Shown here in pieces: positions 9,097 through 11,237 of a stretch of 32,456 nt of DNA. The first letter of the stretch is position 1. Every line of letters begins with the position of its first letter. Made by a program: the position numbers and the translations under genes. The DNA comes from Paracoccaceae bacterium (GTDB taxonomy: Bacteria > Pseudomonadota > Alphaproteobacteria > Rhodobacterales > Rhodobacteraceae): assembly GCA_030065075.1 (NCBI GenBank), contig JASJDQ010000024.1, forward strand, positions 1 through 32,456, read 5' to 3'. The notes beneath the pieces were generated by a model, which saw only the letters and a program-made list of their open reading frames with translations, was not told the origin of the DNA and ran no database searches.

Positions 9097-9130
9097 AAAA
9101 CGCCCCCCTCCGGTCTGCCAGAGAGGGGCG
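9097..9130 (-). terminator. Intrinsic terminator of hsp20
   Basis: On the minus strand CGCCCCTCTC and GAGGGGGGCG form a stem of 9 pairs out of 10 around a 10-base loop (9101-9130). It is followed by TTTT and then AAC. It lies 23 bp after the hsp20 stop codon and ends just before the next leftward gene. Confidence 0.7.
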
Positions 9131-9152
9131 CGAACGAATTGTCCAAGTGGAG

Positions 9153-9611
9153 TTACTTGGCCTCAACGGCTTTCGCTTCGACGGTATCACCGTTGGTGAT
9201 TTCGATCCGGCGCGGTTTCAGTGCCTCGGGCACCTCGCGCACAAGATCGATGTTCAGCATGCCGTTCACATGGCTGGCGCCTGCGACGCGCACGTGATCG
9301 GCAAGCGTGAACCGGCGTTCAAACGCACGGTTGGCGATGCCGCGGTGCAGATAGGTGCGATCTTCGTCTTCGTCGGCTTTCTTTGCCGAGACGATCAGTG
9401 CGTCTTCGCGGACTTCCACGTTCAGATCGCTTTCGGCAAATCCGGCAACAGCGATCGAAATGCGCCACGCATCTTCTGCCGTTTTTTCAATGTTGTAAGG
9501 GGGGTAAGACGGGTTCTGGGCCGTGTCGGCCAAAATCCGGTCCATCATGTCGGCAACCTGATCGAAACCAACGGTTGCACGATAAAGTGGTGCAAGATCA
9601 AACCTACGCAT
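9153..9611 (-). CDS. Hsp20-family small heat shock protein (IbpA-like)
   Basis: A 152-residue alpha-crystallin-domain chaperone that binds unfolding proteins in the cytoplasm and holds them for refolding. The start (FDLAPLYRATVGFDQVADM) and 'YPPYNIEKT' match the bacterial class A IbpA group. The crystallin domain spans ~35-125, with 'YLHRGIANRAFERRFTLAD' as the characteristic core and 'GMLNIDLVREVPEALKPRRIEI' as the family end, with an I-x-I-like anchor. An AAAGGAGG ribosome site lies 9 bases before ATG. The leader has a heat-shock-type promoter match (9705-9736) and two hairpins, one enclosing the ribosome site, so regulation by RpoH and by RNA folding is likely. A terminator follows at 9097-9130. 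Confidence 0.96.
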   Translation of the reverse strand: MRRFDLAPLYRATVGFDQVADMMDRILADTAQNPSYPPYNIEKTAEDAWRISIAVAGFAESDLNVEVREDALIVSAKKADEDEDRTYLHRGIANRAFERRFTLADHVRVAGASHVNGMLNIDLVREVPEALKPRRIEITNGDTVEAKAVEAK

Positions 9612-9613
9612 TA

Positions 9614-9637
9614 GGTCATCCTCCTTTGAGCGATACC
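9614..9637 (-). promoter_or_regulatory. Hairpin enclosing the hsp20 Shine-Dalgarno site (candidate RNA thermometer)
   Basis: In the mRNA, GGUAUCGCUC can pair with GAGGAUGACC around an AAAG loop. This gives nine pairs broken by one single-base bulge on each arm. The ribosome site AAAGGAGG lies in the loop and upper stem, and the start codon comes two bases after the hairpin. Such weak bulged hairpins around the ribosome site are the hallmark of ROSE and similar thermometers on small heat shock genes. Function is inferred; the pairing is read directly. Confidence 0.45.
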
Positions 9638-9675
9638 AAGACGCCTTCCCATTCGGGCAAGGCAGATTTTCAGGC

Positions 9676-9700
9676 GTCAGACCCGTGCTCGGCGTCTGAC
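9676..9700 (-). promoter_or_regulatory. GC-rich hairpin at the expected 5' end of hsp20 mRNA
   Basis: GTCAGAC-G-CCG-AGCA-CGG-GTCTGAC forms ten pairs with one bulged G and a 4-base loop. It begins close to where transcription from the 9705-9736 promoter would start, so it may shield the 5' end of the mRNA. It could instead be the terminator of the upstream protease gene, but no T-run follows. Confidence 0.4.
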
Positions 9701-9704
9701 CAGC

Positions 9705-9736
9705 CTTAGGTAGGAACGGGAAAACCCCTGTTCAAG
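9705..9736 (-). promoter_or_regulatory. RpoH (heat-shock sigma factor) type promoter of hsp20
   Basis: On the minus strand, CTTG (9736-9733) is followed after exactly 18 bases by CCTACCTAAG (9714-9705). The published alphaproteobacterial heat-shock consensus is CTTG-N17/18-CYTATNTNNG, so only one fixed position differs. The site overlaps the stop of the upstream protease gene and would give a leader of roughly 85-90 bases. Confidence 0.55.
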
Positions 9737-10385
9737 GCTTTTCGAGTGCGTCGAGCAAAGGAGGCAGCCGGAGGTAAACGTCCGAGGCATTCGCGATAGG
9801 TTGGGTCAAAAGTGTCGACCTGCTGCTGATGATGGCAACCAGCACACGTTCGCCATCGACCAGACGGAAAAGCGGAGAGCCGCTTTCGCCGCCGCGAACC
9901 TCGCACCCAAGGGTGACGAGGCCGCTTTGGTTCGTGATGACCGGGCAGCTGCGCTGCCTTGGGCGGGAGCGCCCGTCGTTGCGCCAGCTGACCAGGAAGA
10001 GGTCTTCGCCCACGACTGCCTCGGTCCCGAAGTCAAAGGGTGATGCGCGATCGCTGTCGATGGGTTCGGCAAGTTTGCCGACGGCTAGATCGAAGCGAAG
10101 ACGCCAGACGACACGGTCATGCGTCGGCTCGTAAAGTGGATACCTTATGAAGCGTGTCACGCTGACGGGGTCTGACGGCACACCGCTTCCAAGGCGAAAA
10201 ACGTGGCGGTCGCTTGGGCCATCCGCGACGCAATGCGCGGCGGTCATGATGACATCCGGCCGGATCAGGACTGCAGTGCAGGTGCCGCTGGTGCTTTGAT
10301 CTTCAATGCGACCGACACCGGCAACGCCCGCGGCAGACGCATGTGTCGCACAGGTGATCAGCGCGAGTAGGATGAACCGAAACAT
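9732..10385 (-). CDS. Exported trypsin-like serine protease (small)
   Basis: A 217-residue chymotrypsin-fold serine protease. An N-terminal signal peptide (FRFILLALITCATHASA, cleavage about residue 18-19) points to export to the periplasm or outside. The catalytic triad is visible: His51 in TAAHC, Asp99 in RFDLAVG and Ser168 in GGESGSPLF. Cys36 and Cys52, and Cys147 and Cys161, probably form the conserved disulphides. The substrate is unknown. It follows a second protease gene of the same family (10422-11237) on the same strand after a 36-bp gap, so they may share a transcript. The hsp20 promoter overlaps its stop codon. Confidence 0.92.
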   Translation of the reverse strand: MFRFILLALITCATHASAAGVAGVGRIEDQSTSGTCTAVLIRPDVIMTAAHCVADGPSDRHVFRLGSGVPSDPVSVTRFIRYPLYEPTHDRVVWRLRFDLAVGKLAEPIDSDRASPFDFGTEAVVGEDLFLVSWRNDGRSRPRQRSCPVITNQSGLVTLGCEVRGGESGSPLFRLVDGERVLVAIISSRSTLLTQPIANASDVYLRLPPLLDALEKP

Positions 10386-10421: not shown

Positions 10422-11237
10422 TCAGGGGCGCACGAACTTGGCGCCATCACGGCCTGACAATTGGCGTGTCTGGTTGGGCCGGATGATATTGACCCCGGGC
10501 GACGGGGCCGGACCGAGATCGCTGTTCAAGAGAACCATCAATTCAGACAACGGCTTTTCAAGGTTGGTTCCAAGCGCCACCTTGCGGCCCCGCACCTCTG
10601 CTTTGGCGGAGACGACAGAGACGATGCGCGGCTGGCCATCGACTTCGGTGAAGATGGGGGCGCCGGAAGAGCCGAAATCGACGTCGCATGACAAGACCAG
10701 GGCACCGCGCTGCCGGGCCAGGACATGGCAGGACCTTTCCAGCGATGGTGTGTCTGCCCGATCGTGGGCATAGGACACGACCCCCACCTGCTGGCCTTTA
10801 CGGGGCCGTCCTGCTGTCTGGAACGGATCGACGTTTGACAGGCGGATATCACTGGCCAGTTGGAAAAGGGCCAGATCGTTCGCAACCGTCGCGTTTCCCT
10901 GCCGACCGCTGAAGACATAGTCGGGGTGTGTCACGATTCGGGTGACGCGGCGGGAGGCCGTGGCATGACCGTTTCGGAAACCTGCGTGAAAGACGACGTC
11001 CGAGGGATTCACCAGGGCACCGCTCGTGGCGCTGTAGGCACAATGTGCGGCTGTCAGAACGATGCGGGGCGCAATCAGTGCGCCCGTGCACATGCCACCC
11101 CATCCGATGTTCAGCCTGCCAACAGCTTCCCACCCGTTTGCGTCGTAGGCTGTGCGCAGCTTGGTAAGCTCGCTGTCTTGAGCGTTTGCTGAGAGTGAGA
11201 AAACGGCCGCACTGATGGCGGCAAACAAAACACGCAT
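10422..11237 (-). CDS. Exported trypsin-like serine protease (large)
   Basis: A 271-residue trypsin-like protease with a signal peptide (MRVLFAAISAAVFSLSANA, cleavage about residue 19-20). The triad residues are His65 (TAAHC), Asp121 (NDLALFQL) and Ser191 (FGSSGAPIF). The C-terminal ~50 residues after the catalytic core are an extension ending in 'RDGAKFVRP'. It is upstream of, and paralogous to, the shorter protease 9732-10385, sharing the overall plan GxCTGxLIxP...TAAHC. The ATG follows GGAAAGGAACGGC, which holds the ribosome site. Target proteins cannot be inferred. Confidence 0.92.
   Translation of the reverse strand: MRVLFAAISAAVFSLSANAQDSELTKLRTAYDANGWEAVGRLNIGWGGMCTGALIAPRIVLTAAHCAYSATSGALVNPSDVVFHAGFRNGHATASRRVTRIVTHPDYVFSGRQGNATVANDLALFQLASDIRLSNVDPFQTAGRPRKGQQVGVVSYAHDRADTPSLERSCHVLARQRGALVLSCDVDFGSSGAPIFTEVDGQPRIVSVVSAKAEVRGRKVALGTNLEKPLSELMVLLNSDLGPAPSPGVNIIRPNQTRQLSGRDGAKFVRP

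What the first reader, a model, noticed from the sequence alone, without database searches (positions are those of the whole stretch)
9614..9637. Candidate RNA thermometer over the hsp20 ribosome site
The mRNA can fold GGUAUCGCUC against GAGGAUGACC with an AAAG loop. The whole Shine-Dalgarno sequence is in the loop and upper stem, and bulges make it unstable. Small heat shock genes in other bacteria are known to use such elements (ROSE, fourU), but this one does not show the usual ROSE or UUUU pattern, so it may be a new variant.
Basis: partly seen in the sequence, partly recalled or inferred. Interest (0 to 1): 0.52.

Follow-up and report, generated by a model that had tools for sequence, protein, structure and literature searches.

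The report
ROSE-type RNA thermometer on heat-shock gene

Summary
The hairpin is real: minus strand, 9637-9614, closing the Shine-Dalgarno sequence of an ibpA-type hsp20 gene (9611-9153). It is the last of three hairpins in a leader of about 95 nt behind a heat-shock-type promoter. There is: UCGCU (9633-9629) is the published ROSE motif U(U/C)GCU, pairing with GAGGA and leaving one bulged G. All three Rfam ROSE models match, below their curated cut-offs. Of 113 same-family ibpA leaders, 112 have the motif within 45 nt of the ATG, against about 5% by shuffling. The stems covary. A model built only from these leaders finds the E. coli ibpA leader, a described ROSE thermometer, at 31.9 bits. ROSE-like thermometers on ibpA and hspD are already in print for a Roseobacter (PMC3230580). 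So this is a new member of a known kind. Modestly new: a family-wide ROSE form that Rfam's cut-offs miss at this gene, and a shorter ROSE-like leader on a second hsp20 gene. Temperature sensing was not shown: computed opening energies fall only slightly more with heat than shuffled controls.

The parts
9153..9611 (-). hsp20 / ibpA-type small heat-shock gene, 152 aa
   Evidence: Pfam HSP20 PF00011, E 1.4e-19; 72 of 137 aligned residues identical to E. coli IbpA
9731..9736 (-). CTTGAA, -35 element of a heat-shock sigma (RpoH) type promoter; overlaps the TGA stop (9734-9732) of the upstream trypsin-like ORF
   Evidence: script with a recalled consensus: window scores 10 of 13; 107 of 113 leaders score 10 or more
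9708..9714 (-). CCTACCT, -10 element of the same promoter, 16 nt from the -35
   Evidence: the family's majority form in this place is TTCCCANAT
9676..9700 (-). ROSE hairpin I, bulged G9693
   Evidence: fold of the isolated hairpin -17.6 kcal/mol at 30 C; own arms pair better than swapped arms over 113 leaders, 0 of 10,000 permutations as good
9643..9663 (-). ROSE hairpin II, bulged G9658
   Evidence: RNAalifold finds it without being told, all 7 pairs with two-sided changes
9614..9637 (-).
   Evidence: RNAalifold finds its upper part, pairs 9634-9618 to 9628-9623; 6 pairs, 98.8% of cells paired
9629..9633 (-). UCGCU = ROSE motif U(U/C)GCU (anti-Shine-Dalgarno)
   Evidence: 112 of 113 orthologous leaders carry T[TC]GCT within 45 nt of the ATG
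9619..9626 (-). Shine-Dalgarno region AAGGAGGA
   Evidence: sequence
9097..9131 (-). likely intrinsic terminator of hsp20: 14-bp stem then a U run
   Evidence: -29.5 kcal/mol, z -5.08, 0 of 200 shuffles as good; the simple pattern scan had reported none

Best explanation
The leader is a ROSE-type RNA thermometer. A heat-shock (RpoH-type) promoter starts an mRNA whose first ~95 nt fold into three hairpins. Hairpins I and II are stable scaffolds. Hairpin III pairs UCGCU(C), with one bulged G, against the Shine-Dalgarno sequence and blocks ribosome entry at growth temperature. The bulged G keeps that stem weak, so warming opens it and IbpA is translated. Heat thus acts twice, on transcription and on translation. 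Shown here: the anatomy, its conservation and covariation, and homology to the E. coli ibpA leader. Inferred: the melting and the repression, from experiments on relatives.
For: All three Rfam ROSE models match the leader along their full length: RF00435 29.3 bits, RF01832 25.2, RF02523 15.6. The ROSE motif is in 112 of 113 orthologous leaders. Covariation: 10 of 13 tested pairs have two-sided changes, covariation score 0.238 against 0.144 +/- 0.005 shuffled, 0 of 500 shuffles as high; arm-swap test for each of three hairpins, 0 of 10,000 permutations as good. A single-nucleotide 5'-arm bulge that is a G appears in 89, 105 and 107 of 113 isolated hairpins I, II and III. Model R1, built only from same-family leaders, finds the E. 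coli K-12 ibpA leader at 31.9 bits, E 2.5e-6, and the ibpB leader at 17.9 bits. In a sample of 289 genomes of the class (window's own included), 117 have an R1 match at E <= 0.1; of the 30 loci returned, all 30 precede IbpA-like ORFs and 29 carry T[TC]GCT. Pseudomonas ibpA thermometers with this motif work in reporters and probing, and single-base deletions that stabilise the SD hairpin lock them (PMC3669281, passages).
Against: None of the three Rfam models reaches its curated cut-off here (45, 65, 43 bits). Computed thermodynamics do not show a thermometer: median opening energy of the pairing strand falls 1.67 kcal/mol from 20 to 42 C in the 113 leaders, against 1.43 with shuffled upstream sequence, and on average 36% of shuffles are at least as closed (for the window itself 0 of 10 shuffles). 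The same kind of computation also shows no melting for the E. coli ibpA leader, so it cannot decide. Within hairpin III the SD side hardly varies, so its covariation rests mainly on one pair (C-G 91, U-G 13, U-A 8); the tree-aware sign test had no power.
Confidence: 0.92

Rival explanations
1. The structured leader is mainly the binding site through which IbpA protein represses its own translation; aggregates that draw IbpA away, rather than melting, relieve it. It may work together with the thermometer.
For: E. coli IbpA and other gamma-proteobacterial IbpAs bind their own 5' UTRs and repress translation; R93 and Y34 are needed, and the authors propose that alpha-proteobacterial IbpAs do the same (PMC10474464: passages; discussion section). 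The window protein has both residues (R95, Y36). The cap of hairpin I (GCC..GG) is nearly invariant in sequence although the arms as a whole covary, which pairing alone does not require.
Against: No binding data for any alpha-proteobacterial IbpA were seen here. The strongest conservation lies on the anti-SD/SD pairing, as a thermometer needs. R93/Y34 may also be kept for other reasons.
Confidence: 0.3
2. The hairpin is a plain constitutive brake on translation (low basal expression), with regulation coming only from the heat-shock promoter.
For: Promoter-type sequence present in front; predicted stability changes little more with temperature than shuffled controls.
Against: A constitutive brake would not need the same U(U/C)GCU core with a bulged G from Rhodobacteraceae to E. 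coli, where homologous elements are reported as thermometers.
Confidence: 0.06
3. Chance hairpin around an SD sequence.
For: A GGAGG sequence pairs easily; the single-sequence z-score is only -2.05.
Against: 112 of 113 leaders with the motif, covariation in three hairpins, detection of E. coli ibpA by the derived model.
Confidence: 0.01
4. A new thermometer class, different from ROSE and fourU.
For: Sub-threshold scores with every Rfam ROSE model.
Against: The diagnostic ROSE motif, bulged G, hairpin architecture and gene context are all present; full-length alignments to RF00435 and RF01832.
Confidence: 0.02

Closest known systems
ROSE element of rhizobia (Rfam RF00435; Bradyrhizobium hspA)
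   Same: U(U/C)GCU motif with one bulged G against the SD; several hairpins; hairpin I with a bulged G before a CC/GG cap; sHsp gene; full-length model alignment
   Different: 29.3 bits, below the 45-bit cut-off; three hairpins here, four in Bradyrhizobium ROSE1 (PMC3669281 passage)
ROSE_2 / E. coli ibpA thermometer (RF01832)
   Same: CCUGUCC..GGAAGG type hairpin II with a bulged G; UCGCU; AUGCGUA start region; homologous protein (72 of 137 identical); found by model R1
   Different: 25.2 bits, below the 65-bit cut-off; SD GAGGAU here, CAGGAG in E. coli
ROSE-like elements on ibpA and hspD of Nautella sp. R11 (Roseobacter clade; PMC3230580)
   Same: same clade and same kind of gene; reported as typical ROSE-like motifs (passage)
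   Different: sequence not given in the passage read; no experiment reported there
Short ROSE-like ibpA thermometers of Pseudomonas (PMC3669281)
   Same: same motif/SD core; shown to melt and regulate (passages)
   Different: two hairpins only
fourU thermometers
   Same: SD-closing hairpin
   Different: no UUUU here

Membership tests
ROSE-like RNA thermometers (definition in PMC3669281 and PMC11342760) | lies in the 5' UTR, directly before the start codon of a small heat-shock gene | tested here: met
ROSE-like RNA thermometers (definition in PMC3669281 and PMC11342760) | U(U/C)GCU motif imperfectly paired with the SD, leaving a bulged G | tested here: met
   window UCGCU 9633-9629, G9631 bulged; 112 of 113 relatives have the motif
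ROSE-like RNA thermometers (definition in PMC3669281 and PMC11342760) | two to four hairpins, SD in the 3'-most one | tested here: met
   three hairpins, each supported by arm covariation
ROSE-like RNA thermometers (definition in PMC3669281 and PMC11342760) | SD opens and translation rises with temperature | not testable with these tools
   folding energies inconclusive
Rfam RF00435 ROSE (curated score) | score at or above 45 bits | tested here: not met
   29.3 bits, full length; 1 of 120 family genomes has a hit over the cut-off, at another sHsp gene
Rfam RF01832 ROSE_2 (curated score) | score at or above 65 bits | tested here: not met
   25.2 bits; 0 of 120 genomes over the cut-off
Rfam RF02523 ROSE_3 (curated score) | score at or above 43 bits | tested here: not met
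   15.6 bits; 0 of 120 genomes over the cut-off
fourU thermometer | UUUU paired with the SD (recalled definition) | tested here: not met
   no UUUU in hairpin III
IbpA self-repression system | IbpA with the essential Arg (E. coli R93) and aromatic residue (Y34) | tested here: met
   R95 and Y36
IbpA self-repression system | IbpA binds its own 5' UTR and represses translation | not testable with these tools
   needs binding and reporter assays

The most novel reading that the evidence does not exclude
In Rhodobacteraceae the leader is a two-input device: hairpin III is the ROSE thermometer, while the sequence-conserved, bulged-G caps of hairpins I and II are recognised by IbpA itself, so that free chaperone represses and heat or aggregates derepress. 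Both ROSE-bearing sHsp genes of the genome would share this logic, in a clade-specific ROSE subfamily that Rfam's cut-offs miss.
Probability: 0.2. Interest if true: 0.42.

Novelty: new member of a known kind. Interest (0 to 1): 0.17.

Why it matters
It places a ROSE element before ibpA across an abundant, largely marine family (112 of 113 leaders from 120 sampled genomes have the motif) in which Rfam's curated cut-offs annotate none at this gene, and gives an alignment from which a better model could be made. It also shows a second, shorter ROSE-like leader on another sHsp gene in the same genomes. For the central question (is it a new thermometer class?) the answer is no.

Tried and rejected
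New thermometer class: rejected, because the ROSE motif and architecture are present. FourU: rejected, no UUUU.

Rfam at curated cut-offs found nothing in the window; only the E-value mode showed ROSE.

Plus-strand fold of the same place was looked at first; the gene and leader are on the minus strand. The plus strand gave z -1.66.

First covariation count by regular expression gave a non-significant Fisher p of 0.11, because it took the first AGGA (often the one in AAAGGAGGA) as the pairing strand. The column-based counts replace it. Both are told here.

Temperature folding: not decisive, and little support for special thermosensing beyond shuffled controls. The E. coli control also stays flat.

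Tree-aware pair test (70 of the 113 leaders): U-A at the loop-closing pair arises in 8 places on the best tree, but only 2 pairs lie on well-supported branches, so there is no test. Pair 9634-9618 (columns 147/168) showed no two-sided change among those 70.

In model R1, hairpin I is built in a majority register of the MAFFT alignment; several of its pairs there are poorly aligned (0.49-0.66 paired), so hairpin I covariation is claimed only from the arm-swap test.

Of the extra R1 hits in the family, I looked at 20: 12 precede HSP20-like ORFs with the motif; 8 look like chance or gave only short or unrelated ORFs.

The E. coli control covers one genome's ibpA and ibpB leaders. Papers not held: the ROSE NMR paper. 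The 2005 paper on RNA thermometers in alpha- and gamma-proteobacteria was seen only as a citation in PMC3230580; it may already list relatives.

Full report
On the minus strand the window reads GGUAUCGCUC-AAAG-GAGGAUGACC at 9637-9614, followed by UA and AUG (start codon 9611-9609). The gene is an HSP20 protein of 152 aa (PF00011, E 1.4e-19), 72 of 137 aligned residues identical to E. coli IbpA (IbpA from NC_000913).

What it is. UCGCU (9633-9629) is the published ROSE motif U(U/C)GCU, which pairs imperfectly with the Shine-Dalgarno sequence leaving a bulged G (PMC3669281 and PMC11342760, passages read). The hairpin in question is the last of three: hairpin I 9700-9676 (bulged G9693), hairpin II 9663-9643 (bulged G9658), hairpin III 9637-9614 (bulged G9631). 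A promoter of heat-shock sigma type, CTTGAA-16-CCTACCT, lies at 9736-9708 (10 of 13 positions of a recalled consensus; 107 of 113 leaders score 10 or more), and a strong terminator-like hairpin follows the gene at 9131-9097 (the simple scan reported none). The gene is thus likely its own transcription unit with a leader of about 95 nt.

Relatives. The protein was searched in 120 genomes of the same family; 119 have a match at E <= 1e-20. I took the ibpA-type leader from 113 of the 120 (30 returned loci, and 83 fetched stretches). The other seven have, judged by score, only another HSP20 type (six) or no match (one). T[TC]GCT lies in the last 45 nt before the ATG in 112 of 113; mononucleotide shuffles give 4.5%, and the stretch -190..-145 of the same leaders has it in 5. 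The exception is L096. A MAFFT alignment (A1), made without structure, gives an RNAalifold consensus with hairpins II and III, each with its bulged G. Of its 13 pairs, 10 have two-sided changes; 96.0% of cells are paired; covariation score 0.238 against 0.144 +/- 0.005 in shuffles (0 of 500 as high), and sliding the partners by 1-3 columns drops pairing to 51-63%. In hairpin III the loop-closing pair is C-G in 91, U-G in 13, U-A in 8, one gap. In an arm-swap test, which needs no alignment of the stems beyond an anchor, each leader's own arms pair better than arms of other leaders: hairpin I -15.6 against -10.3 kcal/mol, II -14.4 against -11.3, III -6.5 against -5.4; 0 of 10,000 permutations as good in each. 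The flanks of hairpin III alone are weaker (75 of 10,000). These permutations ignore kinship; on a quick protein tree of 70 of the 113, the U-A state arises in 8 places, but the tree is weakly supported and the sign test has no power.

The bulged G recurs. Folding each hairpin alone at 30 C, a single-nucleotide 5'-arm bulge that is a G is found in 89, 105 and 107 of 113 for hairpins I, II and III. In ensemble folds of the whole leader the mean pairing probability of these columns is 0.11, 0.21 and 0.30; of the other stem columns checked none is below 0.70. The Rfam consensus structures show the same bulges in part, so this is a shared ROSE feature, not a new one.

Link to a described thermometer. 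A covariance model built only from the 113 leaders (R1) finds the E. coli ibpA leader at 31.9 bits, E 2.5e-6, and the ibpB leader at 17.9 bits, E 0.0084. In the class, 117 of 289 sampled genomes have a match at E <= 0.1. Of the 30 loci returned, all 30 precede IbpA-like ORFs, 29 with T[TC]GCT; 4 of the 30 are of the window's own family, the window included. R1 also contains promoter and start-codon columns, so part of its score is not structure.

Annotation gap. In the same 120 genomes RF00435 has matches at E <= 1 in 36 and over its cut-off in 1, and that one lies before another HSP20 gene (G101, L197). RF01832: 27 at E <= 1, 0 over the cut-off. RF02523: 12 at E <= 0.1, 0 over the cut-off. 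Not all of these sub-threshold matches lie at ibpA. These runs used stricter filters and lose weak matches. R1 itself matches 116 of 120 at E <= 1, by construction for 113.

A second sHsp leader. I fetched 17 leaders of the other HSP20 type (a choice from the listed matches) and read the one in the window's own genome (L033, contig C215). All 18 have TCGCT before the SD, typically GUCGCUU..AAGGAC, with one upstream hairpin whose cap again has CC..GG. Against ibpA leaders (AUCGCU..AGGAU) the pair next to the motif is mostly G-C instead of A-U, a compensatory difference. The third HSP20 gene of the genome (L032, contig C261) shows no such motif before its start.

Mechanism. Most likely: RpoH-type transcription plus ROSE melting. 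Shown: anatomy, conservation, covariation, homology. Inferred from relatives: repression at low temperature and opening on heating (Pseudomonas ibpA: reporters and probing, PMC3669281, passages). Not shown: thermosensing of this sequence. Computed SD opening energies fall from 6.8 to 4.3 kcal/mol between 20 and 42 C for the window, while the E. coli control stays near 4.0. Over 113 leaders the median fall is 1.67 against 1.43 for shuffled upstream sequence, and 36% of shuffles are at least as closed on average, 0 of 10 for the window. Such computations do not decide the matter. A second layer is possible: gamma-proteobacterial IbpAs bind their own 5' UTRs and repress translation, needing R93 and Y34, and the authors suggest the same for alpha-proteobacteria (PMC10474464, passages and discussion). 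The window protein keeps both (R95, Y36).

Is it new? Not as a kind. A 2011 genome paper on Nautella sp. R11, a Roseobacter, states that ibpA and hspD carry typical ROSE-like thermometer motifs upstream (PMC3230580, passage read). My searches for thermometers in Rhodobacter/Roseobacter showed in their listings no experimental study of such an element in this family; most subscription papers are not in that library, so this says little. The clade is Rhodobacteraceae: the nearest named records are Silicimonas MAGs and uncultured Rhodobacteraceae.

Verdict. Real, well conserved, ordinary in kind: a ROSE-type RNA thermometer. Interest low.

Noticed in passing
G000:C215 (locus L033, about 1317-1395): A second HSP20 gene of the same genome has a shorter ROSE-like leader (GTCGCTT..GAGGAC), as do 17 of 17 fetched relatives; model R1 scores it 24.8 bits.
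   Followed up: partly
G000:C261 (locus L032): The third HSP20 gene of the genome has no U(U/C)GCU motif before its start codon.
   Followed up: no
window 9691-9693 and 9683-9684 (minus); columns 47-49 and 61-62 of A1: The cap of hairpin I (bulged G, CC, then GG) is nearly invariant in sequence (112, 111, 109 of 113 for G, C, C) although the arms covary, and it recurs in the second sHsp leader: looks like more than pairing is conserved.
   Followed up: partly
window 9732-10385 and 10422-11237 (minus): Two tandem trypsin-like ORFs lie just upstream of hsp20 on the same strand (PF00089); the TGA stop of the nearer one lies inside the -35 element of the hsp20 promoter.
   Followed up: no
window 9097-9131 (minus): Strong terminator-like hairpin after hsp20 (-29.5 kcal/mol) that the pattern scan did not list.
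   Followed up: yes
locus L197 (G101:C1:527303-527418): A different HSP20 gene (N-terminus MRTSSDITLY) carries the only ROSE hit over Rfam's cut-off among 120 family genomes (53.3 bits).
   Followed up: partly
L179 and L180 (class-level relatives): Their SD side is GGAGAGUAAG instead of GAGGAU, with UUGCU opposite: a different SD-side solution in one alphaproteobacterial family.
   Followed up: no
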